Below are positions 5,845-64,000 of a stretch of DNA of 64,000 nt, one piece after another. Origin of the DNA: Thioalkalivibrio paradoxus ARh 1 (GTDB taxonomy: Bacteria > Pseudomonadota > Gammaproteobacteria > Ectothiorhodospirales > Ectothiorhodospiraceae). Every line of letters begins with the position of its first letter. Position 1 is the stretch's first letter. The position numbers were made by a program, and so were the translations under genes. The stretch lies in assembly GCF_000227685.2 (NCBI RefSeq), contig NZ_CP007029.1, positions 1,896,501 to 1,960,500 on the forward strand, given 5' to 3'. The notes beneath the pieces were generated by a model. The model was given only the letters and a program-made list of their open reading frames with translations. It had not been told where the DNA came from and searched no databases.

Positions 5845-5903
5845 TTCTGCCAGATCTCTGCCAGAGTTCTGCCAGGTTTCTGCCACCGCCGAGGATGGCA
5901 GAA
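5845..5903. promoter_or_regulatory. Upstream activating array: four 11-bp-phased repeats plus an inverted copy
   Basis: The octamer TTCTGCCA (first base C in copy 2) occurs at 5845, 5856, 5867 and 5878, exactly one helical turn (11 bp) apart. An inverted copy, TGGCAGAA, lies at 5896-5903. The array is about 80-135 bp upstream of the sigma54 -24 box and starts 6 bp after the activator stop codon. It is most simply the binding platform of the neighbouring enhancer-binding protein. Confidence 0.7.
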
Positions 5904-5908
5904 CGGGG

Positions 5909-7249
5909 TCAGGTCAGGCCGAGGGCCTTCAGCCGTCGGTAGAGCGTGCGCTCGCTGATCTTCAGAAAGGCGGCCGTCTTGCGGCGGTTGCCGCCGAAGC
6001 GCGCCAGGGCGGCGCGGACGATTCCCGGGTCGTCGGCAGTACAGCCATCGTGGTAGCCGCAGTCCGTGCCGTCGTCGCATTTCGCCGAGGGCTGGGGATG
6101 CCGCAGCTCGGCCGGCAGATGCTGCGGCTCCAGCGTGCCGCCACGCGCGACCACGACCGCACGTTCCAGAGTGTTCTTCAGCTCGCGGACATTGCCCGGG
6201 AAGTCGTAGCGCAGCAGAGCCTCCAGCGCCCCGTCGCTGATCAGCGGGGCGAGGTTCGCCGGCATCAGTTTGCGCAGGAAGAAATCGACCAGCTGCGGGA
6301 TGTCCTCCTTCCGGTGGCGCAGCGCGGGCAGCGTGATCTGCATGCTGTTGACTCGGTAGAACAGGTCGGCCCGGAACGCGCCGGCCTCCACGCGCTGCGC
6401 GAGATTGCGGTTGGTCGCGCAGATCAGCCGGAAATTGGCCTTGCGCTCGCGGTTGTTGCCCAGCCGCCGGAAGGTCCCCCGGTCGAGTACCCGCAGCAGC
6501 TTCGTCTGGATCTCGGGGGAGATTTCGCCGAACTCGTCCAGGAACAGCGTGCCGCCGTCCGCGACCTCGACCAAGCCCTTGCGTGCCGCCGCCGCACCGG
6601 TGAACGCACCGGCCTCGTGCCCGAACAGTTCAGCGACGAACATCTCGTCGGACAGGGTGGTGCAATCGATGGTCACGAATTCCCGCTCGGCGCGCCGAGA
6701 CTTGCGATGCAGGAACAGCGCCGCCAATTCCTTGCCGGTCCCGGTTTCGCCATGGATCAGCACCGGCAGATCGGTCTGCGCCACCAGGCTCAGGTTGTCG
6801 AGCATGTTCATGAACGACGGGCAGCAGCCGATCAGCCGCTCCTCGTCGAAGTCCAGATCGTCCACCCGGCTGATCGGAGCCATGGCCTCGCCAAAATAGC
6901 GCACGCCCCCGCTCTGCGCCCGAATCGGGCTTCCATGCACGTTCACGTAGTACGGGGCCCGATCCCGATCGAAATGCTGGTGCACGACCTGCACCGGATG
7001 GCGGGACTCGAATACCCGCTCCAGTGGGCATTCCTCTCCGTTCAGGTCACAACGGTCGGTGCTCTTGTGCGAAACCTCGTGGCATTTCATCCCGACGATG
7101 TCGTCTGGAGTCAGGTCGGTATAGGCATCCGCGTACTTCCTGTTGCACGCGACGATCGTGTAGTGCTCGTCGATCAGTGCAAAGGGCTCCGGATGTGCCT
7201 CCACCAGGCTTTGCAACAACGCATGGTCGTCTTGGTGTGTCTTGCCCAT
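5909..7249 (-). CDS. PAS-domain sigma54-dependent transcriptional activator
   Basis: A 446-residue enhancer-binding protein. An N-terminal PAS domain (about 8-125) carries an inserted motif CHEVSHKSTDRCDLNGEECP (C56, H57, H61, C67, C74). The AAA+ domain has Walker A GETGTGKE (167-174), the sigma54 contact loop GAFTGA (214-219) and Walker B GTLFLDEFG. A cysteine-rich linker, KCDDGTDCGYHDGC, precedes a Fis-type helix-turn-helix ending in SERTLYRRLKALGL. The start MGKTHQ at 7249 begins just before the PAS domain. The gene lies directly upstream of the phased repeats and sigma54 promoter, so it very likely controls the cytochrome/fcc cluster. The cysteine/histidine PAS motif suggests redox, metal or sulfur sensing (inference). 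Confidence 0.88.
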   Translation of the reverse strand: MGKTHQDDHALLQSLVEAHPEPFALIDEHYTIVACNRKYADAYTDLTPDDIVGMKCHEVSHKSTDRCDLNGEECPLERVFESRHPVQVVHQHFDRDRAPYYVNVHGSPIRAQSGGVRYFGEAMAPISRVDDLDFDEERLIGCCPSFMNMLDNLSLVAQTDLPVLIHGETGTGKELAALFLHRKSRRAEREFVTIDCTTLSDEMFVAELFGHEAGAFTGAAAARKGLVEVADGGTLFLDEFGEISPEIQTKLLRVLDRGTFRRLGNNRERKANFRLICATNRNLAQRVEAGAFRADLFYRVNSMQITLPALRHRKEDIPQLVDFFLRKLMPANLAPLISDGALEALLRYDFPGNVRELKNTLERAVVVARGGTLEPQHLPAELRHPQPSAKCDDGTDCGYHDGCTADDPGIVRAALARFGGNRRKTAAFLKISERTLYRRLKALGLT

Positions 7250-49735: not shown

Positions 49736-52228
49736 ATGCAGGATTCCCATGGACACCCGCCACACCGCCGCAATCGCCCGCCCGGGCGCGACGAACCTGG
49801 TTCCCGATTCCAGTCGGTGCTGCCGCTGCAACTCGACGAATTGATCGAGCACTGGCACCTCACGCGTTCGCGGTCGTGCCCACTGCCCGATCTGAAAGAG
49901 CTGCGCGGCCTGACCAAGGTTCTGATCGGAAACCTGACGGGAAGCGACCTGACCCGCCTGTTCACGCTTGCCCGCCGGATCGACGAGCGCCTGGGCTTCT
50001 TCCTGAACAGCGGCGCGCAGCCCCAGCGCCACGAGCAGGAAACCATTGGCGGTCTGTTCTCGAACCTGCGCAGTACCATGGAGCAGGAGTTGCTGGAGCG
50101 GCGACAGCTGTCTCAGGGCCTCGAACCCGGCGAGGTCCGGCACACGACGTACAACGATGAGGCGCGCGACGACCGACTGCTCTACTTCCTCCGCCCCGAG
50201 CCTTCCCACTCCGAACAGCTCGTGCCCCAAATCGAATCCCGCGGCCTCTGTGTCCAGAGCCTACGGCATGTCGATCAGCTGCGCACCGCGCTATCGGAGC
50301 GGATCCCTGCCGGTGTACTGGTGCACGTTCCGGGCGACGGCACGCCGGCGGGCCCGATCGCCGCAATCCAAACGCTGCGGCATTCCGCGCACCCGGATAC
50401 GCCCTGGGCATGGCTTCTCGACTGCGACGACCCCCGGGCTCGTCTGGAAGCTGTTCGAGGTGGTGCCGACGCATGCTTCTCGCGCCAAATGCCCGCTCCG
50501 GACGTTGTGGACCGACTGGTCGACCTGATCCATGGACACCGGCCGGAACCCTACAAGGTGCTTGTGATCGACCCGGATCCCGCCGAAGCCATCACGCTCT
50601 TCAGCACCGTTTGTGACGACGCGCCGTTGGAATTCCGATGCACTGCGGACCCGTTCCAGGCGCTGGAGTTCGCGGCCATCGAGCGGCCCGAGGCCATCGT
50701 GTCAGCGATGCGCTTCCCTGGCATGGACGGAATCGAGCTGAGCCGCCTGCTGCAGCAGGCAGACCCGAGTCTGCGGCCCCCGATTCTTCTGCGCGGAGAC
50801 TCGCGGGCCATCGCGCTCGACCACGATCGCATCCATGCCGAAGGGCTGGAGCTCCTGGTCGACGGCGAGTCTCCGGAATGGGTCCTTCGGCGCGTATGCG
50901 ACCAGGCACGCCGGTATCGGCGGGATGCAGCGAGACTGCAATCGATCTCGAAAATCGATCACCCCACAGGCTGGTACAGCCGCCACTACTTCGAAGCGCT
51001 GCTCGGGCAATGGCTGTTGGCGGAGGACAGCGGCTCCGAAATCCCTGCGCTGCTTTTCGCCGACCTGGATGCCGCTTTCGAGCAACCGGCGGGCGCCGGC
51101 AGAGGGGCTGTTCCACACCCCGCTGCGTTACCGCGGGAACTGGTAAAGCGGCTGTGGAAAATCCTGGGCCCGGAGGACATCGTCGGTCGGTACAGTGCCA
51201 CGGGCCTGGCCATCCTGGCACGACGATCCGATGCCGGGCAGATCGAAATCCTCGCCGCTGCGGTGCGACAAGCCCTGGCCTGCCCCACGCCCGGTGACCT
51301 CGACGAGAGCCCCGCAGTCACTGCCGGCGTCGGTGTGGTGCCACTACAGGGGAGCAACGCGCAGGCGCTGATCAACGATGCCATCGAACTCGCCAGCCGC
51401 GCGCGCAACCAGAACGGGACCGGTATCCTGCTGGCAAGCGAGTTGGGGATGCCCGCGATCGAACCGGAGCAGCGTACCCAATGGACCCGGATCATCCACG
51501 GCGCGGTCAGCGACAAGCGGCTGTTCCTCGTTTATCAGCCGGTCGCAAGCCTCGTACCCGCAGACTCCGCCGAACGCTTCGAGGCGCTGCTGCGCATGCG
51601 CGACCCTTCAGGGCAAATCCTGCTGCCGGGGCAATTCGTCGGCATGGCCGAGCGCCTTGGCCTGATCCGTTTGATCGACCGTTGGGTACTCGCCGGCGCC
51701 GCGGCGATGCTGGCCCAGCACCAGGAAGCGCATCCCGAGGCAATGGTCTTCATGAAGGTCAGCGCCGGTTCGATCCTCGACCCCGGATTCGGTCCCTGGA
51801 TCGGCGAAACGCTGCAGGGATGCCCGCCCCGCCCAGGCAGTCTCGTGCTGCAGATCCGCGAGGCCGATGCACGAACCTACCACGAAGCCGTACGGCTGCT
51901 GATCCGCCACCTGCGCCAGCTGCACATCCCGATCGTGATCGAGCATTTCGGCACGCGCGCGGATTCCATCCGGCTGCTGCGCGACCTCCGGCCCGATTTC
52001 GTGAAGCTGGACCGCAGTTTCACGCAGGAGCTGCACGCGCAGCCCGAACGGGTGCGTGCCCTCGACCACATCGTGCAACAGGCACGATCGCTGGGCGTGA
52101 AAACCATCGCTGCGTATGTCGAGGATGCCGGCAGCCTTGCAATCCTCTGGCAGCAGCACCCGGACCTGATCCAGGGCAACTTCCTGAAGCAACCCGACAC
52201 CCTGCTCCTGCACGACATCGTTCTCTGA
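49736..52228 (+). CDS. Multidomain signalling protein with degenerate receiver, GGDEF and EAL domains
   Basis: An 830-residue cytoplasmic protein. After a basic N-terminus and helical region come receiver-like segments. The better one (about 275-395, YKVLVIDPDPAEAITLFSTV) has lost its phospho-aspartate (VSAMRFPGMDG). A GGDEF-like domain (about 405-565) has no GGDEF motif. The EAL domain (about 585-825) keeps FEALLRMRD but has KVSAG for the usual NLS, and EHFGT for DDFGT. So phosphodiesterase activity is unlikely, and a c-di-GMP-binding effector like FimX is the best guess. GGGAGGAG precedes the ATG. Monocistronic. Confidence 0.82.
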   Translation: MQDSHGHPPHRRNRPPGRDEPGSRFQSVLPLQLDELIEHWHLTRSRSCPLPDLKELRGLTKVLIGNLTGSDLTRLFTLARRIDERLGFFLNSGAQPQRHEQETIGGLFSNLRSTMEQELLERRQLSQGLEPGEVRHTTYNDEARDDRLLYFLRPEPSHSEQLVPQIESRGLCVQSLRHVDQLRTALSERIPAGVLVHVPGDGTPAGPIAAIQTLRHSAHPDTPWAWLLDCDDPRARLEAVRGGADACFSRQMPAPDVVDRLVDLIHGHRPEPYKVLVIDPDPAEAITLFSTVCDDAPLEFRCTADPFQALEFAAIERPEAIVSAMRFPGMDGIELSRLLQQADPSLRPPILLRGDSRAIALDHDRIHAEGLELLVDGESPEWVLRRVCDQARRYRRDAARLQSISKIDHPTGWYSRHYFEALLGQWLLAEDSGSEIPALLFADLDAAFEQPAGAGRGAVPHPAALPRELVKRLWKILGPEDIVGRYSATGLAILARRSDAGQIEILAAAVRQALACPTPGDLDESPAVTAGVGVVPLQGSNAQALINDAIELASRARNQNGTGILLASELGMPAIEPEQRTQWTRIIHGAVSDKRLFLVYQPVASLVPADSAERFEALLRMRDPSGQILLPGQFVGMAERLGLIRLIDRWVLAGAAAMLAQHQEAHPEAMVFMKVSAGSILDPGFGPWIGETLQGCPPRPGSLVLQIREADARTYHEAVRLLIRHLRQLHIPIVIEHFGTRADSIRLLRDLRPDFVKLDRSFTQELHAQPERVRALDHIVQQARSLGVKTIAAYVEDAGSLAILWQQHPDLIQGNFLKQPDTLLLHDIVL

Positions 52229-52485
52229 GGCCAATGCCGGAAAACCGAATACCGGATTGCGCCGGACGATCGCTCGTAGCCAAGACGCTATCACGGGCGC
52301 ATGGTGGTTCCATGTGACCGTGATGGCAACGCAGCGGATAATCGAAACGACTGGCAAGACGGGTTCCGGTTTGACAGCAATGGCCTACTGAGCCCCAGCA
52401 GACCACTTCGGCCGGGCGCGGTCCGTTTCCCTCCGCGACGGCGCAATCGCTATGATGGCGGCCCGGATTCCAAGCCCGAAAGCGC

Positions 52486-54030
52486 ATGTCCTACAGCACC
52501 TTCAGTCACCTGGTCGCCGACAAAGCCGCGTTGTACCGGCGCATCATGGCCGCCTTTGTCGACGCCAAGGCGCACTTCACCGTGCACCTGCGCCCGGAAG
52601 ACGTGCGCGAGCGCACCGGCATCGACACGCTCGAGGACGTGCAGGCGGCGCTGGCACAACTGGTCGCCTGGGGCAACCTGGAGGCCGACCCGGACACCTC
52701 GCGCGTGACCAGCGTCGAGGAGTTCTACCGTGCCCGCTTCCTCTACCAACTCACGCGCGCCGGCGAGGCGGCCGAGCAGGCGCTGCAGGTGTTCGACCGC
52801 GAGCTGGGCCGCCGCGGCGCGCTGCAGGCGGTCGCGCTCGACGACATCCGCCTGCGCCTGCAATCGCTGCTCGAACTCTCGAGGCAGGCGCATCCCGACG
52901 CGACCCAGACGCAGTTACTGCTGCGCGACCTGACCCACGTATTCTCGGACCTCGCCGAAAACGCCCGCGCCTTCATGAGTGGGCTGTCGCGAACCCTGGA
53001 ACTGCGCGGCGACGACCAGCAGGCGCTGATCGCGTACAAGGAGCGCCTGATCGGATACATCGAGCGCTTCATCGGCGACCTGGTGACCAGTTCCGCCGAA
53101 ATCGCCGGCACCATCCGCGCACTCGACCGCGACGACGACGGTCGCCGCCCGATCACCCCGCTGCTGCGGCTGGCGGTCGAACGCGAACTCGACGACCTCG
53201 CCCCCGACCTGGCCGATCCGCTCGACATCGACGCGGCCCGGGACGCAGAGCGCCGGCGCGTGAACGCGCACTGGGAAGGCCACTGGGAAGGACTGAAGGC
53301 ATGGTTCCTGGACCGGCCCGAGCGACGCTCTCAGGCCAGCCTGCTGCGTGCCCAGGCCCGGCGCTCGATCTCGCAGATGCTCGAGGCCGTGCAGCGGCTG
53401 AACGAACGCCGGCTCGGTCGCAGCGACCGCTCCGCCGACTTCCGCGCGCTGGCGCGCTGGTTCCTCGAATGCGAGAACGACGACCAGGCGCACCGGCTCT
53501 GGCGGGCCGCGTTCGGCCTCGGCCCGGCGCGGCACCTGGGCGTCGATGCGGAAACGCTGGCCCAGTGGCGCGCCGACCCGGTCCCGGCGAGCCAGCCCTG
53601 GCGCGATGCCCCGCCGCTGCGGATCAGCCCCCGGCTGCGCGCGACCGGCAGCTACCAGAAGCGCGGTGCGATGCCCCGGCTGCAGCGGCGCGACCGCGAG
53701 CGGGCGTTTCTCGCCCAGCAGATGTCCCGCGAGGCCGCCGAAACGCGCGCAGCCCGGGCCGCGCTCGCAACCGGCGAGATGCTGCGCCTGTCCGAACTCG
53801 ACCGGCTCGACCCCGGCGCGTTCTCCCTGCTGCTGCAACTGCTCGGCGACGCGCTGAGCCACGCCGCGCACCCCGACCATGCGGTCGCCGCGACCACCGG
53901 CGACGGCAGCCTGCGCATCGAGATGGAGCCTCTGGGGGCCGACACCGAGGCGGCGATCCGCACCGAAGCGGGTACGCTGTCGGGCCGCGATTACCGGATT
54001 CGGATCACCGAACTCGAGGCGGCGCCCTGA
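52486..54030 (+). CDS. jetA: Wadjet type II protein JetA (DUF2397/TIGR02677 family)
   Basis: A 514-residue kleisin-like subunit of the SMC-type anti-plasmid complex. The opening FSHLVADKAALYRRIMAAFV and the winged-helix-like EDVQAALAQLVAWGNLEADP are characteristic of TIGR02677. The rest is mainly helical, with VFSDLAENARAFMSGLSRTL near 150. The C-terminus includes an arginine/glutamate-rich region. It is the first gene of a four-gene same-strand set; its stop overlaps the jetB start (TGATG). In type II systems JetA-JetB-JetC load on DNA and JetD cuts plasmids; this is family knowledge. Confidence 0.88.
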   Translation: MSYSTFSHLVADKAALYRRIMAAFVDAKAHFTVHLRPEDVRERTGIDTLEDVQAALAQLVAWGNLEADPDTSRVTSVEEFYRARFLYQLTRAGEAAEQALQVFDRELGRRGALQAVALDDIRLRLQSLLELSRQAHPDATQTQLLLRDLTHVFSDLAENARAFMSGLSRTLELRGDDQQALIAYKERLIGYIERFIGDLVTSSAEIAGTIRALDRDDDGRRPITPLLRLAVERELDDLAPDLADPLDIDAARDAERRRVNAHWEGHWEGLKAWFLDRPERRSQASLLRAQARRSISQMLEAVQRLNERRLGRSDRSADFRALARWFLECENDDQAHRLWRAAFGLGPARHLGVDAETLAQWRADPVPASQPWRDAPPLRISPRLRATGSYQKRGAMPRLQRRDRERAFLAQQMSREAAETRAARAALATGEMLRLSELDRLDPGAFSLLLQLLGDALSHAAHPDHAVAATTGDGSLRIEMEPLGADTEAAIRTEAGTLSGRDYRIRITELEAAP

Positions 54031-55283
54031 TGCCCGCCCTGCCCCAGCCGCTGCCCGATGTGCTCGAACGCGCCCGAGCCGAAGAGCGCCAGCGGGCATT
54101 GCGTGCGTTGCTGATGCAGCCACTGATGGACGCCCGCCATCCGGCGTTCGCGCTGGTGCGCCGGCACCAGGCGCCGCTGCGCGAATGGCTCGCCGCCGAA
54201 ACCGGCTGGCACCTGCAGGTCGAGTCCGAGTTCGCCCGCCTGTACAAGAGGCCCGCGGAGCTGCGCGACGCGACCCGCGGTGCGGCCCTCGGCAGCGGAA
54301 CCCAGACCACGCCGTTCAGCCGCCGGCGTTACGCGCTCCTGTGCCTGATCCTGGCCGATCTCGAACGCGGCGATCAGCAGATCACGCTGGCGCGCCTGGG
54401 CACCGGCCTGATTCAGGCCGCCGCCGACCCGGCGCTGGAAGCCGCCGGCCTGCGTTTTCGGCTGGACCATCAGGACGAGCGCCGCGACCTGGTCGCGACG
54501 GTGCGCCTGTTGCTGGACTACGGCGTACTGGCCCGCGTCGCCGGCGACGAGGAGGCCTTCGTGCGCGACCAGACCGGCAGCGACGCGCTCTACGACATCA
54601 ACCGCCGCATGCTGGCCGCGCTGCTGGTCAGCGTGCGCGGCCCCTCGCTGGTCGAGATGGAGGGGCCGACGAGCGATCTCGAAAAGCGCCTGCAGGCCCT
54701 GACCGAATCCTTTGTGCCGGACACCCAGGAAGGGCGCAACCGCGCGCTGCGCCACGCACTGACCGCGCGCCTGCTCGACGACCCGGTGGTGTACTGGGAC
54801 GAACTGCCGGACGACGCCCGCCAGTACCTCACCAGCCAGCGCGCGGCGATCACCCGGCGCATCGCCGACGCCACCGACCTGGTCCCGGAAATTCGTGCCG
54901 AGGGCGTCGCGATGGTCGACCCGGCCCAGAACCTGAGCGACCAGTCGCTGCCCAGCGAGGGGACCGAAGGCCACGTAACGCTGCTGATCGCGGCCCATCT
55001 GGCGGAGGCGCCGGAGGGCAGCCGTTTTACGCTCGACGCGCTCGCCGAGCGGGTCGCCCGCTGGCGCCCGCAATACCGCGGCTACTGGCGCCGCTCGGCA
55101 CTCGCCGCCGGCTCCGAGCGGGCACTGGCTCGGCAGGCGGTCGAACAGCTCCGCCGTCTGCGCCTGGTCGCGCTCGGAGCCGACGAGCAGATCCACCCCC
55201 TGCCCGCACTCGCCCGCTTCGCGGTCGAGCCCGCGCGCAGCCCGCAGGGCAAGCCCCTCGCCGAGGCCGCCGATGCAAGCTGA
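54030..55283 (+). CDS. jetB: Wadjet type II protein JetB (DUF2398/TIGR02678 family)
   Basis: A 417-residue KITE-like subunit. Recognisable TIGR02678 stretches are ERQRALRALLMQPLMDARHP near 20, LREWLAAETGWHLQVESEFA and FSRRRYALLCLILADLERGD, then LLDYGVLARVAGDEEAF with a winged-helix look. DALYDINRRMLAALLVS follows. It overlaps jetA by one base, while a 135-bp gap with a half MITE separates it from jetC. Probably bridges JetA and the JetC ATPase heads. Confidence 0.88.
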   Translation: MPALPQPLPDVLERARAEERQRALRALLMQPLMDARHPAFALVRRHQAPLREWLAAETGWHLQVESEFARLYKRPAELRDATRGAALGSGTQTTPFSRRRYALLCLILADLERGDQQITLARLGTGLIQAAADPALEAAGLRFRLDHQDERRDLVATVRLLLDYGVLARVAGDEEAFVRDQTGSDALYDINRRMLAALLVSVRGPSLVEMEGPTSDLEKRLQALTESFVPDTQEGRNRALRHALTARLLDDPVVYWDELPDDARQYLTSQRAAITRRIADATDLVPEIRAEGVAMVDPAQNLSDQSLPSEGTEGHVTLLIAAHLAEAPEGSRFTLDALAERVARWRPQYRGYWRRSALAAGSERALARQAVEQLRRLRLVALGADEQIHPLPALARFAVEPARSPQGKPLAEAADAS

Positions 55284-55320
55284 CGCCGCGCGCTTCCGCC
55301 CGACAACGCATCCCGCCCAG

Positions 55321-55358
55321 GTAGGGCGGAAGAGGCCGAAGGCCGTCATCCGCCATTC
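55321..55358 (+). repeat. Half copy of the MITE-like element between jetB and jetC
   Basis: GTAGGGCGGAAGAGGCCGAA followed by GGCCGTCATCCGCC matches only the left arm of the dispersed element; the right arm is absent. It lies in the only sizeable gap of the Jet operon. Confidence 0.8.
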
Positions 55359-55418
55359 CCGGGCGAAGGAACGCACCCCGGCATCGGCATCGCCCCCCTG
55401 CCCCGCAGGCCTCCCGCG

Positions 55419-58400
55419 ATGAGCGATCTCCCGCAACCGGGCAAGACGCGCTGGCAACCACTGCGCGCGGGGCTGATCGAACTCTTCTACTACGACCACG
55501 AGGAGTTCCGCTTCCACGACGGGCGCCTGTTGCTGCGCGGCAACAACGGCACCGGCAAGTCCAAGGTGATGGCGCTGACGCTGCCGTTCCTGCTCGACGG
55601 CCGACTGAGCCCCTCCCGGGTCGAACCCGACGGCGACGGCAGCAAGCGCATGGAGTGGAACCTGCTGATGGGCGAAACCGGCGAGCGCCAGGGCTACGCC
55701 TGGATCGAGTTCGGCCGCCAGGGCGACAACGGCCCCGAGTTCCTGACCCTCGGCTGCGGTCTGAAGGCGGTCGCCCAGCGCGGCGTGCGTTCCTGGTTCT
55801 TCATCACGCCGCAGCGTGTCGGCGACTCGCTGTTCCTGGTCGAGGATGGCCGCACGCTCAGTCGGGACCGGCTGATCCAGGCGCTCGGATCCAGCGGCCG
55901 CCCCTACGACCAGGCCACCGCCTACCGCTCGGCGGTCGACCAGCAGTTGTTTCAACTCGGCACCGAGCGCTACGAAGCGCTGCTCGACCTCTTGCTGCAG
56001 CTGCGCCAACCGCAACTGTCCAAGCGCCCGGACGAGTCGCGGCTGTCGAACGCGCTGACCGAAGCGCTGCCGCCTCTGGACTCCGCGGTGATCGCCGACG
56101 TCGCCGAGGCCTACCGCAACCTGGAGGCCGAGGCGGACGAAACCCGCGGGCTGGAAGAAGCCCATCACGCAGTCACCGAATTCCTGCACCACTACCGCCG
56201 CTACGCCGGCATCGCGGCCCGGCGCCGCGCCGGCGAAGTGCGCCGCCGCCATCGCGAGTACGAGGACACGCGCGCCCGGGTCGGCCACCAGCGCAAGACC
56301 CTGGACGCAGCCCGGGAGCGCGACGAAGCGCTGGAGGAACGCGAAACGCGGAACGAACGCGCGGTGCAGGAAGCCGAGCAACAACGCCAGACATTGCGCG
56401 ACAGCCCGGCGATGCGTTCCGCCCAGGCCCTGCACGCGGCCGAGGACACCGCCCGCGAGCGCCGCGCGTTCGCCCAGTCGCGGGCCACGCTGCAGGCACA
56501 GACCGAACAGACCCGCCAGCGGCTCGAACAACAGGCGCAGGAGCAGGAAGCCGCGGCGGCGGAAACGGCGCACGAAGCCGCGACCACGCTGCAGGGGCTG
56601 GCCACCGCGGCAGAGGTCGGCGGCATCGCCGAGCCGCATGGCGCCGCACTCGCCCGGCTCGGCCTGCCGGATTCCCGCGACGTGCCGCTGGATCAGGTCG
56701 AGCGGCAATTGCAGAACCTGCACGACCGGCGCCGGGACTCGATCCGGCTGCTACAGCAGCACAACCGCGAACTCGCCGACGCCGAACGGCGCGTCGACTC
56801 GGCCCGCGAGCACTGGCAGCACCAGGTCGACGAACACGACCGCCTGACCCTGCGGCACCAGGACGCCCGCTCGGCCGCCGAAGCTGCGGCCGAGCGCCTG
56901 CTCGACGCCTGGCGCGACTGCCTCGCCGGCCTGCGCGAACTGCGCCTCGACGACACCGAAGAGACGCTCGCCGATCTCGCCGCCTGGCTGCGCGGCCTCG
57001 AGGGCGCGAATCCCGCCCAGCAGCAACTGGAAGCGCGCCGTGACCAGCGCGTTCGCGAGATCGCCGCCGAGCGCAGCCGGCATCAGCACGACACGATGCA
57101 GCAGGCGCTGGACGCACTGGAGGCCGAACGCCTGCACCTTGAAACCGGCGCCGAGATCGCGCCGCCCGTGCCGCATGTGCGCGACGACGCGCTGCGCATA
57201 TCCCGGGCCGGCGCGCCGCTCTGGAAGCTCGTCGATTTCCACGCCGAAGTGCCCGACGAGACCCGCGCCGGGATCGAGGCCGCGCTGGAATCCGCCGGCC
57301 TGCTGGACGCCTGGATCCTGCCCGATGGCCAGTTGCTCGATCCCTACACCTGGGACACCTGGCTCGCCGCCGACCTCCCCATCCCGGAGCAATCCCTCGA
57401 CCGCATCCTGCACCCCGCGGTCGACTGGCAGGATCCGGCGCAACAGCCGGTCGGGGCTGCCGAGGTCGCGGCGATTCTCGCCCGGATCGGCCTCGGCGAG
57501 CAGCCCGATCAGGCGCACTGGATCGGCGAGGACGGGCGCTGGCGGCTCGGACCGGCGCGCGGCGCCTGGGGCAAGGGCGAAGCGCAGTACATCGGCCACG
57601 CCGCCCGCGAAGCGGCACGCCAGGCGCGGCTCCGGCAGATCGCCAGCGAAGCGCAGGCCTGTCGCGACGCGATCGACGCCGCAATGCAAGCGCTGCAACG
57701 CCTGGACCAGCGCGAGCGCCGGCTCCGCGAGGAATGGCGGACACAGCCCGAGGACGGCCCGCTGCGCACCGCCTATGCCGAGGAAGCCTCTGCGCTGCGC
57801 ACGCTGGAGAGCCAGACCGAACGCACCGAGGCAGCGCGCAGGGCGCTCGAGGCGCGCAGCCACGAAGCCGCCGAGCAGCGCCAGCAGCGCGACGAACTGG
57901 CCGCCGACCTGGCGCTTCCGAGCGCCGACGAGCCACTCGCCGCGGTAGCCCGGGCGGTCGAAACCTATGGCGCGGGCATTCGCGAACTGACCCGGGCGCT
58001 GCGCGACCAGCGCCGGGAACAACTCCGGCTCGAACGCATGCTGCAGGACCTGGAACAAGCCCGGGCCGAAGCGCAACAGGCCACCGCCGACGCCGCCACC
58101 GCCGAGAGCAACGCCCGCAATGCGGAAACCCAGCGCGATACGCTGCGCGAGACCATCGGCGCCGATGTCGCGGAACTCGAGCAGCGGCTCGCCGAGGTCG
58201 AACGGCGCCAGGCCGCGTTGAAGTCGGAACGCCAGTCACTCGGCCAGGAGCGCACTCGGATCGCCCGCGAGATCGGCCGCCTCGAGGCCGACATCTCGAA
58301 CGGCGAGCAGCAACTGGTGGCGATCGGCGACCAACGCGCGGTGGCAATCACGCGCCTGCGCGAACTCGCCGATGCCGGGCTGGTGCCAATGGCCACCGCC

Positions 58401-59546
58401 GACCGGGTAACCGTCGACCCGGAACTGTCGTGGGCGCCGGAACCGGCGGTGCTGCTCAGCCGGCGCATGGAACAGGCACTGGCCGAGGTCGACGAAAGCG
58501 ACACCGCATGGCAACGCCACCAAAAGGGCCTGCACCAGCATTTCGCGGTGCTCCAGGGCGCGCTCGGCCGTCACGGCCACGATGCGCACATCGAGCAACA
58601 GGACGACCTGCTGCTGGTGCGCATCATCTTCCAGGGCCGCCACCACGGCCCGGACGCGCTCGCCGCGCAACTGGCACGCGAGATCGAACGCCGCCGCGAG
58701 CTGCTGACCGCGCGCGAGCGCGAACTGGTCGAGAACTACCTGCTCGACGAAGTCGCGAGCCATCTGCAGCTGCGGCTGATGGAAACCGAACGGCAGGTCC
58801 GGCAGATCAACGACGAACTCGCCGAACGCCCGACCAGCACCGGCATGCGCCTGCGCATCCAGTGGCAACCGCTCGCCGAAGGCCAGCAGGCCGCGGGCCT
58901 GACCGCACCGGCCGGGCTCGACATCACCCGCAACCGGCTGCTGCGCCAGAGCATGGACGCCTGGTCCGCCGACGACCGACGCGCAGTGGGCGAGTTCATC
59001 CAGGGCCGGATCCGCGAGGCACGCGAAACCGATAGCGCCGGCGCCCTCACGGACGTGCTGGAACGCGCGCTGGACTATCGGCACTGGCATCGCTTCGTCG
59101 TCGAACGCTGGCAGAACGGCCGCTGGCGACCCGCCTACGGCCCGGCCTCCGGTGGCGAACGCGCGCTGGTGATCACCCTGCCCCTGTTTGCCGCCGCCGC
59201 CAGCCATTACGAGAGCGCCCAGCCTGCCGCCCCGCGGCTGATCATGCTCGACGAGGTCTTTGCCGGCGTCGACGACGACGCGCGCGCCAAGAGCATGGGC
59301 CTGCTCGCGCAGTTCGATCTCGACGCGATGATGACCTCCGAACGCGAGTGGGGCTGCTACCCCGAGGTGCCCGGGCTTGCGATCGCGCAACTGATCCGGC
59401 GCGAGGGCATCGACGCGGTCTACGTTTCGCGCTGGCGCTGGGACGGCGCCCACCGGATCCGCGAATCCGACCCGCAGACGCCGATGGAAGCCACCGCCGG
59501 ACCGGAGAAGGCCGCGGAGGGGCCCGCCACCGAGGAGCTGTTTTGA
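55419..59546 (+). CDS. jetC: Wadjet type II SMC-like ATPase JetC (TIGR02680 family)
   Basis: A 1375-residue condensin/MukB-like ATPase. Walker A GNNGTGKSK is at 41-49, inside LLRGNNGTGKSKVMALTLPF. About 250-1150 is alternating coiled coil and hinge (for example DRRRDSIRLLQQHNRELADA). The C-terminal head has the ABC signature ASGGERALVITLPL (about 1245) and Walker B PRLIMLDEVFAGVDDDA (about 1272). It extrudes DNA loops that mark circular plasmids for cutting by JetD (family knowledge). The start at 55419 follows a good context; the stop overlaps the jetD TTG start. Very large reverse-strand frames here are GC-driven shadows. Confidence 0.93.
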   Translation: MSDLPQPGKTRWQPLRAGLIELFYYDHEEFRFHDGRLLLRGNNGTGKSKVMALTLPFLLDGRLSPSRVEPDGDGSKRMEWNLLMGETGERQGYAWIEFGRQGDNGPEFLTLGCGLKAVAQRGVRSWFFITPQRVGDSLFLVEDGRTLSRDRLIQALGSSGRPYDQATAYRSAVDQQLFQLGTERYEALLDLLLQLRQPQLSKRPDESRLSNALTEALPPLDSAVIADVAEAYRNLEAEADETRGLEEAHHAVTEFLHHYRRYAGIAARRRAGEVRRRHREYEDTRARVGHQRKTLDAARERDEALEERETRNERAVQEAEQQRQTLRDSPAMRSAQALHAAEDTARERRAFAQSRATLQAQTEQTRQRLEQQAQEQEAAAAETAHEAATTLQGLATAAEVGGIAEPHGAALARLGLPDSRDVPLDQVERQLQNLHDRRRDSIRLLQQHNRELADAERRVDSAREHWQHQVDEHDRLTLRHQDARSAAEAAAERLLDAWRDCLAGLRELRLDDTEETLADLAAWLRGLEGANPAQQQLEARRDQRVREIAAERSRHQHDTMQQALDALEAERLHLETGAEIAPPVPHVRDDALRISRAGAPLWKLVDFHAEVPDETRAGIEAALESAGLLDAWILPDGQLLDPYTWDTWLAADLPIPEQSLDRILHPAVDWQDPAQQPVGAAEVAAILARIGLGEQPDQAHWIGEDGRWRLGPARGAWGKGEAQYIGHAAREAARQARLRQIASEAQACRDAIDAAMQALQRLDQRERRLREEWRTQPEDGPLRTAYAEEASALRTLESQTERTEAARRALEARSHEAAEQRQQRDELAADLALPSADEPLAAVARAVETYGAGIRELTRALRDQRREQLRLERMLQDLEQARAEAQQATADAATAESNARNAETQRDTLRETIGADVAELEQRLAEVERRQAALKSERQSLGQERTRIAREIGRLEADISNGEQQLVAIGDQRAVAITRLRELADAGLVPMATADRVTVDPELSWAPEPAVLLSRRMEQALAEVDESDTAWQRHQKGLHQHFAVLQGALGRHGHDAHIEQQDDLLLVRIIFQGRHHGPDALAAQLAREIERRRELLTARERELVENYLLDEVASHLQLRLMETERQVRQINDELAERPTSTGMRLRIQWQPLAEGQQAAGLTAPAGLDITRNRLLRQSMDAWSADDRRAVGEFIQGRIREARETDSAGALTDVLERALDYRHWHRFVVERWQNGRWRPAYGPASGGERALVITLPLFAAAASHYESAQPAAPRLIMLDEVFAGVDDDARAKSMGLLAQFDLDAMMTSEREWGCYPEVPGLAIAQLIRREGIDAVYVSRWRWDGAHRIRESDPQTPMEATAGPEKAAEGPATEELF

Positions 59547-60805
59547 GCCTCGACCGCGAGCGCCTGCAGCGGCTCCTGGGCGGCCCTGGTACCGAACGCC
59601 TCCGCCGGCGTCTGCGCGAACGCCTCGGGCGCGGCGGCGGCGACACGCTGACGCTCACCCGCAGCACCCCGGAAGAACGCGCGGCGGTCGAGCGGCTGCT
59701 CGGCCGTGCGCCACGCAGCGGCAGCAGCCTGCGCGTGTCGCTGCCGGAAATCGACGCGACGCTGGCACGCGCCGGAATCGCGCCCGGCCTGCGCGCGGCG
59801 CTGGAGGCGCTCGACGGCCCGATCCGCGACCAGCAGGCGGAACAGCAGGCCGAAACCCGGCGCTGGCAGGCACTGTTCGAAGCGGTGCGCGAGCGCGCCG
59901 CGCCTCTCGGGCTGGAAGCCTGGCTCGACGAACTCGCGGCGCGCGGACTGCTGAAGCGGCTGGCGCGACGGGATCCGGCGCGCGCCGCCGCGCTGCTCGA
60001 CCAGAGTCTCACGGTACTCGAAGCGCTCCCCGATCCGGGCCTGAACCGCAGTACCCTCGCCGCCCGCTGTCTCGGCGACGCGCATGGTCTCGACCCGGGC
60101 CAGCCCGCCGCCGCACTGGTACGCCGGGCGCTGCACCGCCACTGGCGCGGCGGCATCGGCGACGACCGGCCCGACGAGCGCACGATCTGGGCGCATGCCG
60201 GCATCCTGGTCGGCGGCGACATCACCAGCACCGTGCTGGTCTACCAACTGCCGGTGCAGGGCGACACCCCCGGCTCGCGGATGCTGCGGATTCAGAATCA
60301 GGTCGGCGAGCCGGCCTACCTCACGCTGCGCCAGCTGCTGCGGCACCCGCCGCGCTGGGATTGCGCGGACCGCGACGTGTTCGTCTGCGAGAACCCCACC
60401 GTGGTCGCGGAAGCGGCGGAACGCCTGGGCACCGAATGCGCCCCGCTGATCAGCACCGGCGGCCGACCCGGTGCCGCGGTGTGGCTGCTGCTGGAACAAT
60501 TGCGCGACGCCGGCGCGCGCCTGCAGTACCGCGCCGATTTCGACTGGGCGGGATTGTCGATCATGAACAGTGTGCTCGCGCGCTTCGAGGCGCGCCCCTG
60601 GCGCATGGATGCCGCGACGCTGCAGCGCCACGCGGAGGTTCCCGGCCCGCCCCTGGAGGGGCCGGCCGCGGCCGCTCCGTGGGACCCCGACCTCGCCCCC
60701 ACGCTCGCCGCCCGCGGCACCGCACTCCACGAGGAGCGGCTCCTGGACGAGCTGCTGGCAGACCTTTCTCGATCTCCGGCGAACGCCTGCGCAGTATCCC
60801 CCTGA
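59543..60805 (+). CDS. jetD: Wadjet type II nuclease subunit JetD (DUF2399/TIGR02679, Toprim)
   Basis: A 420-residue protein whose C-terminal half is a Toprim nuclease domain related to Spo11/TopoVI-A. The Toprim glutamate is in VFVCENPTVVAEAAERLG (about 285) and the DxD in YRADFDWAGLSIMNSVL (about 333). The N-terminal half matches TIGR02679, with LGGPGTERLRRRLRERLGRG. The start is TTG at 59543, inside the jetC stop (TTGA), with GAGGAG upstream; no ATG fits. It completes the Jet system with both catalytic motifs intact. Confidence 0.9.
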   Translation: MSLDRERLQRLLGGPGTERLRRRLRERLGRGGGDTLTLTRSTPEERAAVERLLGRAPRSGSSLRVSLPEIDATLARAGIAPGLRAALEALDGPIRDQQAEQQAETRRWQALFEAVRERAAPLGLEAWLDELAARGLLKRLARRDPARAAALLDQSLTVLEALPDPGLNRSTLAARCLGDAHGLDPGQPAAALVRRALHRHWRGGIGDDRPDERTIWAHAGILVGGDITSTVLVYQLPVQGDTPGSRMLRIQNQVGEPAYLTLRQLLRHPPRWDCADRDVFVCENPTVVAEAAERLGTECAPLISTGGRPGAAVWLLLEQLRDAGARLQYRADFDWAGLSIMNSVLARFEARPWRMDAATLQRHAEVPGPPLEGPAAAAPWDPDLAPTLAARGTALHEERLLDELLADLSRSPANACAVSP

Positions 60806-60916
60806 TTCCGACGCCGCGGGCGGAGCCTCGAGCCGTCGACCGGCTGCAAAATGCCGCGCGGTTCACCATTGCGGCGGCGCACTCGAAAGGCGCCCGCGGT
60901 TGTGCTTGCGCGGCCG

Positions 60917-61834
60917 CTACGGCACCGGCGGCGCACCGAGCAGCTGCAGGTAGGTGGCGGGCGCATGCTGCAGTCCGGCCTCGTCGAACCAGCTATCACG
61001 GTTGCGAACCCTGCCCTCGAGTGCGATTCCCTGCCCCGGCTGCAGGTACCGATCCCCGAGTACCGTCAGCAGTTCACGCATCGCGACGACCAGCGGACGC
61101 AGACCAGCGGGCAGCTTCGGCGCCCCCGGGAACGAATCCTCGATCCGCGCAAACGTCTGCCAGGCATGCGGCACTAGATCGATCGTGTTATAGAATCGCC
61201 CGGCACTAGCCGCGAACTCGTCCTCCATCCACTTCGCGAACGCCGGATTGCCCGCGGTGGGGGCCCCAAAGGTCACCGGCCAAAACTGCAGCGATCTATC
61301 CCCGATGTGCTGCTGCAAATAGCCGGCCAGCATATACGCCAGCGTCCCGCCAACGCCGTGCCCGACCACCGGAACCACCCCGGGAAACGGCTGCTGCGCA
61401 GCCAGGTACTCGACCAGCGTGGTTTCAGGGGTTGTTCGTTCGTCCACCAGGCTCAACAGGCTGGTCAAGCCATCGAGCGAACCCCAGGACACGTAGGCCC
61501 CGCGCGGCCCATCGCCGTAGAGCCATGGGGACAGCCCCAGGGTGTTCAGGTCTTGCTCGAACCAGTCGATCCAGAACTCTTCGGTCTGCGGGCTGGCCGC
61601 CGAGCCCCGAATCGAGATCGCGATCTGCCCCGTCAGATCGTCGCGCGCAACGAACATCTGGCATCCATCGCCCCAGACCCGCCATTCGAGCGCCCAACGC
61701 CCCTGCGTCGCCAGATCCGGGTTTGCCAGCGCGTCCGCGACACGATCCAGGGGCTTGTACGCGATCGTGGCCAGCGTCATTCCGACACGGCCCGCGGTAC
61801 CAGCGTCGTCCATCCGGATCATGGGCTTCATCAA
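60917..61834 (-). CDS. Class 3 lipase-fold protein lacking the nucleophile serine
   Basis: A 305-residue protein with the lipase class 3 layout: substrate-loop IAISIRGSAAS near 85, the nucleophile elbow near 160, the acid in YNTIDLVPHAWQTF and a C-terminal histidine in LQHAPATYLQLL. The elbow reads VVGHGVGGTLAYMLAGYL, where GHSxGG is expected. The codon is GGC, so the catalytic serine is glycine. It has no signal peptide. Activity as a lipase is unlikely unless another residue substitutes. It lies between the Jet operon and the CRISPR array, in the opposite direction to Jet. AGGGAG precedes the ATG. Confidence 0.78.
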   Translation of the reverse strand: MMKPMIRMDDAGTAGRVGMTLATIAYKPLDRVADALANPDLATQGRWALEWRVWGDGCQMFVARDDLTGQIAISIRGSAASPQTEEFWIDWFEQDLNTLGLSPWLYGDGPRGAYVSWGSLDGLTSLLSLVDERTTPETTLVEYLAAQQPFPGVVPVVGHGVGGTLAYMLAGYLQQHIGDRSLQFWPVTFGAPTAGNPAFAKWMEDEFAASAGRFYNTIDLVPHAWQTFARIEDSFPGAPKLPAGLRPLVVAMRELLTVLGDRYLQPGQGIALEGRVRNRDSWFDEAGLQHAPATYLQLLGAPPVP

Positions 61835-61995
61835 ACACTCCCTGTCGGTTCCGGGGATCCGAAATCTCTTCTACGCGCCCATGTTCCGACCGACGCGACA
61901 CCCCGTCAAGCCGTGTGATTCCCCACCTCGCCAGCGTCGTTCGCCCGGAAGCAAGGGGATCTCACCGGAGGCGGTCACCCCGATGATGAGAGGGA

Positions 61996-62110
61996 CGCGG
62001 GGCGGAAAAGGCCGAAGGCCGTCATCCGCCATCCAGCGCTGAGGCCGCCGCCAGCGCCCGGGCAGCACGAACGCCGCACGGCGGATGACGCTGCGCTCTT
62101 CCACCCTACG
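61996..62110 (+). repeat. MITE-like palindromic element, copy E, abutting the CRISPR array
   Basis: Left end CGCGGGGCGGAAAAGGCCGA and right end CTTCCACCCTACG, slightly diverged from the other copies. The internal GTCATCCGCCA / GGCGGATGACGCTGCGCT arms are intact. The right end at 62110 runs directly into a truncated CRISPR repeat. Confidence 0.82.
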
Positions 62111-63120
62111 GGCTACTTCATCAGGGAGGTCGTTCTGACGCGGTGCCCCCGCACACTACCCATGCCACAACGTCTTAATCCCTTCTTCATCAGGGAAGTC
62201 GTTCTGACCAGCAGCCTCCGCGCTTTCGTCGTCCGCGACGCCGTCTTAATCCCTTCTTCATCAGGGAAGTCGTTCTGACATTGGCGGCGCACGAAGGAAT
62301 GGATTGCCAAGGTCTTAATCCCTTCTTCATCAGGGAAGTCGTTCTGACGTCGGTGCCGAGAAAGCCGCCACGGCTGCGGGAGTCTTAATCCCTTCTTCAT
62401 CAGGGAAGTCGTTCTGACAACGGTCTGGGAGCTCATGCCTGAGTACTCCTAGGTCTTAATCCCTTCTTCATCAGGGAAGTCGTTCTGACTCAACGGCACC
62501 GAGTACACCATCGGATTCAGTCGTCTTAATCCCTTCTTCATCAGGGAAGTCGTTCTGACGCGTGCGACCGACCCACCGGTGGCACTAATGGAGTCTTAAT
62601 CCCTTCTTCATCAGGGAAGTCGTTCTGACCTGGGATGACAGCAAAGCGGCCTGCGATAACAAAGTCTTAATCCCTTCTTCATCAGGGAAGTCGTTCTGAC
62701 TCAGGTGGACGCGGTACGCGATGGCTCGAAGGGTCTTAATCCCTTCTTCATCAGGGAAGTCGTTCTGACTCGAGCGCCTGGAAAACCTGCTCGCACCCGA
62801 CATGTCTTAATCCCTTCTTCATCAGGGAAGTCGTTCTGACCTCAGATGATCGCGAATGAGGAGTGGGGCTAGTGTCTTAATCCCTTCTTCATCAGGGAAG
62901 TCGTTCTGACCATTTGGGAGGTGTGGCATGACAACCACTGAAGTCTTAATCCCTTCTTCATCAGGGAAGTCGTTCTGACACAAGCGGTCCTACACCCTTG
63001 CGGCCCTTGCGGTGTCTTAATCCCTTCTTCATCAGGGAAGTCGTTCTGACAAGGCGACCAGCGCCAAGGCGACCAGCGCCAAGGTCTTAATCCCTTCTTC
63101 ATCAGGGAAGTCGTTCTGAC
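62103..63120 (-). CRISPR. CRISPR array: 14 intact 37-bp repeats plus one broken repeat, 14 spacers
   Basis: Intact repeats start at 62172, 62243, 62312, 62382, 62453, 62523, 62593, 62664, 62733, 62804, 62874, 62943, 63014 and 63084. All 14 are identical: GTCTTAATCCCTTCTTCATC then AGGGAAGTCGTTCTGAC. A degenerate repeat (62103-62139) keeps only CTTCATCAGGGAGGTCGTTCTGAC. Spacers are 32-34 bp. The degenerate end at the left and cas2 at the right indicate that the leader is on the right and crRNA is made from the minus strand. In that sense the repeat starts GTCAGAAC, can form a 5-bp TCCCT/AGGGA stem, and ends ATTAAGAC, a plausible 8-nt handle. Type not determined. Confidence 0.98.
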
Positions 63121-63242
63121 TGCATGGCCTGAAAACACCTTTTAGAACAACCACTTGCAGATGGGGTTCGCGGGTTTCGGGGGCGGTGGCAGACTGATGC
63201 ATTTCTTGACGGCGATTCGGGCACGTTCCGGGCAATCTTAGC
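63121..63242 (-). promoter_or_regulatory. Probable CRISPR leader
   Basis: A 122-bp non-coding stretch between the cas2 stop and the first repeat. The part touching the array is A/T-richer (CTGAAAACACCTTTTAGAAC), as leaders often are. No clear promoter boxes. Confidence 0.55.
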
Positions 63243-63572
63243 TCACTCGGCCAGCGCCTGCAGCAAGGTGACCAGGCCCGGGTTCTCGTGGGAGTGAAGC
63301 AACGCGCCGTCCGGAAGCGCGCCGCGGCCGAGCGTGTCGACCTGGGCGGGGTTTGGAATCGGATAGGCCCGCACGTCGTCTTCGCGGTGGTCGATGCGAC
63401 CCGCGATGTCGTGCAAACAGCGCGCGAGCTGGGCGCTGCTGCCCTCGTAGTAGAACACCGAGTATTGCACCGGCTGGGCAAACCGCTTCAGGAAGCGATG
63501 CAGCCGGATCAGCCGCCGCGGGTCGGCGATGTCGTAGCAGATAAGCCACGCGCGCGGTGCGTTCAGTGCCAC
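63243..63572 (-). CDS. cas2: CRISPR adaptation endonuclease-fold protein Cas2
   Basis: A 109-residue partner of Cas1 in spacer integration. The ferredoxin-like opening AWLICYDIADPRRLIRLHRF carries the conserved aspartate (D14). QPVQYSVFYYEGSSAQLARC and IDHREDDVRAYPIP follow, all typical of Cas2. GTG start at 63572 (VALNAPRAWLI), overlapping the preceding gene by 10 bp; longer frames shadow that gene. The gene points toward the array, from which it is separated by the leader. No cas1 is within the window. Confidence 0.88.
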   Translation of the reverse strand: MALNAPRAWLICYDIADPRRLIRLHRFLKRFAQPVQYSVFYYEGSSAQLARCLHDIAGRIDHREDDVRAYPIPNPAQVDTLGRGALPDGALLHSHENPGLVTLLQALAE

Positions 63573-64000
63573 GATCCAAGCTCCGTGCGCAGGTGGCGCT
63601 TCAAGTCGCCGAGATGCTGCAGCAGTCGGTTCTGGTTTCGCTGCGCCCAGTTCTCGAAGAACAGCAGCGACGCGGCCCCCGTTTCGACCTGCTCGGCCAG
63701 GGTGCCACAGTGCAGGTTGAGGTCGGCCCAGAACAGGCCGGCGATGTCGTCCGCGAGATCCATCGAGGTTCCGTCGAACCCCCAGTACTGGATATCGACG
63801 CCCTCGGCCAGCAGGCGCTGAACAGTCACGCTGGCGCACCAGGCCCGGGCCTCCGGCACGAAATGATCGGCAAGCCTGCCCTGGTATACGAACTGCCGCT
63901 TGAGATCGTTGAACAGGCGAACCGGAACCCGCAGCCCGGGGCCGATGCTGCCCGCCCAGTGCGCGAGCACGTTCATGCGGCGGCTGCGCAGCCAGTTGCG
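63563..64000 (-). CDS. Unrecognised protein overlapping cas2, C-terminal part only
   Basis: The frame is open to the right edge of the window, so only the last 145 residues are seen. It includes an ATG at 63976 (MNVLAHWAGSIG), but coding continues upstream (RNWLRSRR). Visible stretches are VRLFNDLKRQFVYQGRLADH, VQRLLAEGVDIQYWGFDGTS, DDIAGLFWADLNLHCGTLAE and FFENWAQRNQNRLLQHLGDL. I do not recognise the family. It lacks the acidic/His pattern of a Cas1 C-terminus. It ends 10 bp inside cas2, so it is co-translated with it and is probably CRISPR-associated. Confidence 0.6.
   Translation of the reverse strand, partial: RNWLRSRRMNVLAHWAGSIGPGLRVPVRLFNDLKRQFVYQGRLADHFVPEARAWCASVTVQRLLAEGVDIQYWGFDGTSMDLADDIAGLFWADLNLHCGTLAEQVETGAASLLFFENWAQRNQNRLLQHLGDLKRHLRTELGSWH

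What the first reader, a model, noticed from the sequence alone, without database searches (positions are those of the whole stretch)
52486..60805. Complete Wadjet type II (JetABCD) anti-plasmid system
All four TIGR02677/02678/02680/02679-type genes are present, overlapping or close, with intact ATPase and Toprim motifs. It should restrict small circular plasmids. The TTGA coupling of jetC and jetD suggests tight stoichiometry.
Basis: partly seen in the sequence, partly recalled or inferred. Interest (0 to 1): 0.6.

Follow-up and report, generated by a model that had tools for sequence, protein, structure and literature searches.

The report
Complete type II Wadjet anti-plasmid operon
A sulfur bacterium carries an intact-looking four-gene machine of a well-known kind that finds and cuts small circular DNA such as plasmids; it lies at one edge of a larger block of defence genes that a sister species shares.

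Summary
The four genes at 52486-60805 match the Wadjet type II families nearly end to end and far above curated cut-offs (504.9, 329.8, 1248.2, 340.9 bits), and type II PADLOC models fit best. ATPase and Toprim residues are invariant among the relatives aligned. The TTGA overlap of jetC and jetD is real and conserved in near relatives; it argues for coupled translation, not for a given stoichiometry. A solved JetABC complex is the closest structure (9qe0/9qe1; JetB only weakly), and a type II complex is reported to cleave circular DNA (passage). So: a new member of a known kind; activity is inferred, not shown. Additions: (1) jetABCD is the left edge of a block of about 40 kb with type III CRISPR-Cas genes that is mostly 96-99% identical to a sister species outside the arrays, with flanks of 71-92%. 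(2) The sister's jetC frame is broken. (3) A genome-wide repeat sits between jetB and jetC.

The parts
52486..54030 (+). jetA (DUF2397, kleisin-like subunit), 514 aa
   Evidence: TIGR02677 504.9 bits (cut-off 165.85), residues 5-509; PADLOC JetA2 625.9 bits; 9qe0 JetA E 1.3e-28
54030..55283 (+). jetB (DUF2398, KITE-like subunit), 417 aa; ATG overlaps the jetA stop by one base
   Evidence: TIGR02678 329.8 bits (cut-off 124.65; scanned from 54027); PADLOC JetB2 454.3 bits; joint
55321..55360 (.). copy of a genome-wide palindromic repeat (REP-like) in the 135-base gap between jetB and jetC
   Evidence: I8 and I10 (and D2); core pattern, up to 2 mismatches, 227 sites in the genome against 4 for the reversed-pattern control
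55419..59546 (+). jetC (SMC-like ATPase, MukB-like), 1375 aa; Walker A 41-48, signature 1244-1248, Walker B 1278-1279
   Evidence: TIGR02680 1248.2 bits (cut-off 462.85), residues 11-1346; PADLOC JetC2 1419.8 bits against JetC1 42.2; 9qe0 JetC E 2.5e-78
59543..60805 (+). jetD (DUF3323 + DUF2399, Toprim nuclease), 420 aa, TTG start overlapping the jetC stop (TTGA)
   Evidence: TIGR02679 340.9 bits (cut-off 196); PADLOC JetD2 455.5 bits against JetD1 18.4; E283, D332, D334 invariant in 9 sequences; Foldseek matches to MksG, Top6A, P. aeruginosa JetD
52425..52485 (.). left edge of the block that is highly similar to sister genome G010
   Evidence: 97.3% identity begins at window 52425, while the GGDEF/EAL gene upstream is 71% or 72-78% in pieces
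62172..63120 (-). neighbouring CRISPR array, 14 exact 37-base repeats (part of the same block, not of Wadjet)
63243..64000 (-). cas2 (63243-63569) and the cut-off diverged cas1 (from 63563, continuing beyond the window) of the neighbouring CRISPR-Cas locus
   Evidence: PF09827 57.2 bits; PADLOC 'Cas1, diverged variant, second in the loci' 450.3 bits on the longer frame in L008

Best explanation
A complete chromosomal type II Wadjet system of a Thioalkalivibrio. JetA, JetB and JetC form an ATP-driven SMC complex that loads on DNA and extrudes loops; on a small circle the two motors run out of DNA and stall against each other, and the Toprim nuclease JetD then cuts the circle. Shown here: family membership of all four genes, intact motifs, gene order, coupling overlap, one copy in the genome. 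Inferred from published work on relatives: loop extrusion, size and shape sensing, cleavage, plasmid restriction. The confidence is for what it is and how its kind works; that it is active in this very host I hold for somewhat less likely (see the second rival, which shares this identity).
For: Full-length matches above curated cut-offs and type II models best; invariant catalytic residues; closest PDB matches of JetA and JetC are a solved JetABC, 9qe0/9qe1, JetB weakly the same entry (E 0.087); the JetD model resembles C. glutamicum nuclease 8b7f (E 1.2e-5), Top6A 1d3y (1.7e-3) and P. aeruginosa JetD 7til (2.6e-3). Low dN (0.004-0.014) against dS (0.06-0.09) between the window and G010 for jetA, jetB, 407 codons of jetD and the first 700 codons of jetC. 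PMC12647877 (passages): a type II complex from Neobacillus vireti cleaves naked circular DNA. Review and in vivo work: PMC10586767, PMC12287153 (passages).
Against: No activity was tested. In sister genome G010 the near-identical operon has a broken jetC frame, so the system may be dispensable there. JetB finds its PDB relative only weakly, and JetD finds none by sequence; the JetD fold matches have TM-scores of only about 0.3 and just one is below E 0.001. The hinge model was poor (mean pLDDT 58.2).
Confidence: 0.93

Rival explanations
1. An SMC complex that mainly organises or segregates the chromosome (MukBEF/MksBEF-like), with JetD as accessory.
For: JetC is MukB-like by model description, and weak matches to chromosomal SMC models occur, far below their cut-offs.
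Against: JetD with intact Toprim residues is coupled to jetC; patchy presence: 7 of 30 genomes of the genus above the TIGR02680 cut-off, own included; frame break in G010; it lies in a block with CRISPR-Cas genes.
Confidence: 0.04
2. A type II Wadjet by descent that is decaying or silent and no longer works in this host (same identity as the best explanation, different state).
For: Near-identical operon broken in G010; repeat inserted between jetB and jetC; only one weak promoter-like site upstream.
Against: All frames open, motifs intact, dN well below dS.
Confidence: 0.1
3. The complex acts mostly on phage or other circular intermediates rather than on plasmids.
For: It lies beside CRISPR-Cas type III genes.
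Against: The published targets of Wadjet in the passages read are circular plasmids. The JetD search of phage records, which had no match, does not bear on targets.
Confidence: 0.05

Closest known systems
JetABC in PDB 9qe0/9qe1, which I take to be the type II Wadjet of Neobacillus vireti (nvJET); the PDB listing gave only the names JetA, JetB, JetC, and the link is inferred from the structure paper cited in PMC12647877
   Same: Same kinds of subunits, similar JetC length (1375 and 1371 aa), JetC aligned at residues 10-799 and 1065-1349
   Different: Diverged (JetC 267.5 bits by phmmer); whether the hinge lacks a channel as reported for nvJET could not be settled
Type II operon of Thioalkalivibrio genome G010
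   Same: 97% identical DNA, same genes to the left and a CRISPR-Cas locus to the right, same TTGA overlap
   Different: jetC frame broken near codon 720; no match to the lipase-like gene in the 18 kb examined
Type II operon of genus mate G007
   Same: All four genes, 60-76% identical proteins
   Different: A Uma2-like gene lies between jetC and jetD
Wadjet type I (P. aeruginosa PA14 and others) and MksBEFG of C. glutamicum
   Same: Architecture (passages); JetD fold
   Different: Type I models score far lower on JetC and JetD and are not listed for JetA and JetB

Membership tests
Wadjet type II | jetA, jetB, jetC, jetD together in this order on one strand | tested here: met
Wadjet type II | TIGR02677, TIGR02678, TIGR02680, TIGR02679 above curated cut-offs | tested here: met
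   504.9/165.85, 329.8/124.65, 1248.2/462.85, 340.9/196 bits
Wadjet type II | type II models fit better than type I or III | tested here: met
   JetC2 1419.8, JetC1 42.2, JetC3 15.9; JetD2 455.5, JetD1 18.4; no type I or III match listed for JetA and JetB at E up to 0.1
Wadjet type II | SMC-type ATPase motifs in JetC | tested here: met
   Walker A, signature, Walker B invariant in 6 JetC; PF13558 76.1 bits, cut-off 27
Wadjet type II | Toprim acidic residues in JetD | tested here: met
   E283, D332, D334 invariant in 9 JetD (their role assigned from general knowledge); fold match to MksG, Top6A, JetD
Wadjet type II | hinge without central channel, as reported for nvJET | tested here: inconclusive
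   the stretch that holds the hinge aligns with 9qe0 JetC, but the predicted model is poor (mean pLDDT 58.2)
Wadjet type II | ATP-dependent cleavage of small circular DNA, loss of plasmids | not testable with these tools
   needs experiment
Wadjet type I | best match to type I JetC and JetD models | tested here: not met

The most novel reading that the evidence does not exclude
Wadjet II and the adjoining type III CRISPR-Cas genes travel and work as one anti-plasmid unit: the whole block moves between Thioalkalivibrio lineages by recombination near a tRNA-Ser gene, Wadjet cuts small circles, and type III CRISPR deals with the large elements that Wadjet cannot measure. The repeat between jetB and jetC may set the ratio of the JetAB and JetCD parts.
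Probability: 0.08. Interest if true: 0.45.

Novelty: new member of a known kind. Interest (0 to 1): 0.2.

Why it matters
By 2023 most Wadjet work had been on type I (PMC10586767, passage). This copy adds a type II member from Thioalkalivibrio, with a near-identical sister copy whose jetC is broken: a natural pair for comparing plasmid content. The block comparison suggests that Wadjet can move together with CRISPR-Cas genes. None of this changes what is known of the mechanism.

Tried and rejected
Spacers of the neighbouring array (window 62100-63140 as one query) against phage and plasmid records: phages no match; plasmids 4 records: two (H19, H20) match in 6 and 7 pieces, read by me as CRISPR repeats without opening the records, and two (H21, H22) are single short matches at E about 1 inside query 58-93, which I read as chance; so no target was identified. 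The arrays beyond the window were not searched.

RNA structure as the role of the 135-base jetB-jetC gap: the fold is no better than shuffles (z -0.75, 47 of 200 fold at least as well). Intrinsic terminators in 52100-61000: 3 found, 4.1 expected.

Duplicated tRNA end (att site) at the left edge of the block: the 12 bases at the tRNA 3' end occur only once in the 55 kb examined; the words of 11-12 bases shared between the two edges are of the kind chance gives (E 0.16-0.62). An empty site in relatives was not shown: in the 10 genomes other than G010 the match to the genes left of the block covers only about 256 bases of the J-domain gene, and it lies on another contig than the tRNA-Ser/right-hand gene in 9 and about 0.88 Mb away in 1.

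Hinge structure: model too poor to use. JetD by sequence in PDB: nothing below E 0.4.

Large-plasmid test: 18 of 72,556 plasmid records match JetC at E up to 1e-20, the smallest 148,985 bases; this fits the size rule but is weak, for no base rate was taken, no place covers 80% of the query, several matches cover under 20%, and one record is 11.85 Mb, thus probably a chromosome.
Full report
Check of the observation. Each matches its NCBIfam family nearly end to end and far above the curated cut-off: JetA TIGR02677 504.9 bits (cut-off 165.85), JetB TIGR02678 329.8 (124.65), JetC TIGR02680 1248.2 (462.85), JetD TIGR02679 340.9 (196). Pfam agrees: DUF2397, DUF2398, SbcC_Walker_B, DUF3323 and DUF2399 above their cut-offs; a DUF4194 match to JetB and others to JetC are below theirs. 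In PADLOC the type II models are best for all four; type I and III models score 42.2 and 15.9 bits on JetC against 1419.8 for type II. JetB was scanned from 54027, one codon early.

Motifs. In an alignment of 6 JetC (the other five 42-85% identical to the window's) the Walker A residues 41-48, the signature SGGER 1244-1248 and D1278/E1279 are invariant. In 9 JetD (the other eight 43-97%) E283, D332 and D334, which I read as the Toprim residues from general knowledge, are invariant.

Operon joints. jetA and jetB share one base (TGATG). jetB and jetC are separated by 135 bases. jetC and jetD overlap in TTGA with a TTG start for JetD, and a GGAG stands upstream. The same TTGA joint is seen in 7 of the 8 genomes of the family in which I could read it: the window's own, G010, G016, G003 (as L027), G023 (as L029), G014, G037; in G007 a Uma2-like gene (PF05685, 99.1 bits) stands between jetC and jetD. 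A more distant Micromonospora operon (L030) has a GTG start in the same 4-base overlap. This favours coupled translation. It does not give a stoichiometry.

Structure and mechanism. The only significant PDB relative of JetC is 9qe0/9qe1, named JetC (E 2.5e-78; 3.5e-128 with the profile); JetA matches the same entries (E 1.3e-28), JetB weakly (E 0.087). JetD has no sequence match in PDB, but a predicted model (6 sequences, mean pLDDT 71.7, pTM 0.49) is closest to the C. glutamicum nuclease 8b7f (E 1.2e-5), Top6A 1d3y (1.7e-3) and P. aeruginosa JetD 7til (2.6e-3), with low TM-scores of about 0.3. PMC12647877 (passages read) states that a type II complex of Neobacillus vireti cleaves naked circular DNA and lacks a hinge channel, and lists the structure paper (Structure 2025) among its references; that paper I did not read. 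PMC10586767 and PMC12287153 (passages) give the model: loop extrusion on a small circle until the motors meet, then cleavage by JetD; circles above about 50-100 kb and linear DNA escape. From this I infer the mechanism for the present operon. Whether its hinge also lacks a channel I could not settle (model mean pLDDT 58.2).

Host and spread. The window is G000:C1:1896501-1960500 of a single 3,756,729-base contig with one TIGR02680 match. Three of the five named loci that encode a relative of JetC are from Thioalkalivibrio metagenome-assembled genomes, at 82-85% identity in the best segment, so the host is taken to be of that genus. Among 96 genomes searched, 14 match TIGR02680 at E up to 0.001 and 8 exceed the cut-off: 7 of 30 in the genus (own included), 1 of 17 in other genera of the family, 0 of 49 elsewhere in the class. 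Of these 8, G003 and G014 are split over contigs, G023 is a fragment, and G010 is in two frames.

The block. Compared with G010, identity is 97.3% and 97.5% in the two pieces from window 52425 (61 bases before jetA) through jetD; then, after a gap that holds a lipase-like gene with no match in the 18 kb of G010 examined, 96.5% over 18.9 kb; and, after a second array and a stretch of about 1.7 kb without a good match, 95.6% over 8.1 kb, to genome position 1988874 at most (the last two figures include CRISPR arrays). In 1-kb blocks with the best match of each, those inside the block and outside the arrays are mostly 96-99.7%. The exceptions are 1957000 (95.6% over 272 bases), 1958000 (79%, lipase and array start), 1972000 (94%), 1979000 and 1980000 (only 100 and 162 bases match) and 1988000 (91%, the right edge). 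The array blocks are 77-84%. The left flank is 73-88%; the right flank is 84.6-92.5%, leaving aside one 41-base match elsewhere. Other pieces of the window farther left are 87-90% with one of 2 kb at 95% (rows for the genome-wide repeat left aside); the GGDEF/EAL gene just left of jetA is 71%. dS is 0.090, 0.065, 0.068 for jetA, jetB, jetD and 0.062 for the first 700 codons of jetC; no dS was computed for other genes. The block holds, besides jetABCD, a Cas10 of the III-B kind, Cmr6- and Csm3/Cmr1-like proteins, a second Cas10 of the Csm1 kind, an ordinary and a diverged cas1 in tandem, a further cas1-like and cas2 pair and a Csx1/CARF-PDDEXK protein; not every frame in it was scanned.

The right edge lies in the last kilobase before a tRNA-Ser (GCT) gene at 1988959-1989049. 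With a query that begins 60 bases before that tRNA, the match begins at query base 60 or 61, the tRNA's 3' end, in all 10 genomes other than G010 (as a separate tRNA piece in 5 of them), and at 16 in G010. This is what an island beside a tRNA would give, but it is weak: diverged intergenic DNA would end the match at the same place, and what lies beyond was not read. No duplicated att site was found. Recent exchange of the block between the two lineages is the simplest reading of the identity step; strong local conservation is a less likely alternative, since the noncoding stretch between jetB and jetC is also similar (by eye).

Broken sister copy. In G010 jetC falls in two frames that meet near codon 720. 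The frame from the start codon runs on for 1207 aa, so its end would not contain the signature and Walker B part. A sequencing error cannot be excluded.

The repeat between jetB and jetC. Positions 55321-55360 are a copy of a palindromic repeat found also at about 9.4-9.8, 19.3-19.4, 39.7-39.9 and 62.0-62.1 kb of the window; its core pattern with up to 2 mismatches occurs 227 times in the genome against 4 for the reversed pattern. By eye, G010 and G014 have a similar, longer insert in the same gap, while G016 and G003 have a gap of about 70 bases without it. Its RNA fold is no better than shuffles.

Verdict. An ordinary, complete type II Wadjet operon: new member of a known kind. Wadjet and Thioalkalivibrio are not named together in any paper of the held library (0 papers), which says little.

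Noticed in passing
window 62172-64000 and genome 1958672-1981651 (L008, L009): Three CRISPR arrays share one 37-base repeat (46 copies with up to 3 mismatches) beside type III effector genes and a tandem pair of an ordinary and a diverged cas1, plus a second diverged cas1-like gene with a cas2.
   Followed up: partly
window 61978-62138: A repeat element of the genome-wide REP-like family abuts the degenerate last CRISPR repeat, as if inserted in or beside it.
   Followed up: no
L033 (G007) between jetC and jetD, about 5850-6620, minus strand: A Uma2-like gene (PF05685, 99.1 bits) stands between jetC and jetD of a related operon.
   Followed up: partly
window 60917-61834, minus strand: Lipase class 3-like gene (PF01764, 46.5 bits) between jetD and the array, without a match in the 18 kb around the G010 operon.
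   Followed up: partly
L010:4960-5050 (genome 1988959-1989049): tRNA-Ser (GCT) gene close to the right edge of the defence block; in 10 other genomes DNA similarity ends at its 3' end, which may or may not mean an island site.
   Followed up: partly
window 49736-52228: GGDEF/EAL gene left of jetA: by DNA search found in only 2 of 19 genomes of the genus (own and G010), and only 71% identical in G010.
   Followed up: partly
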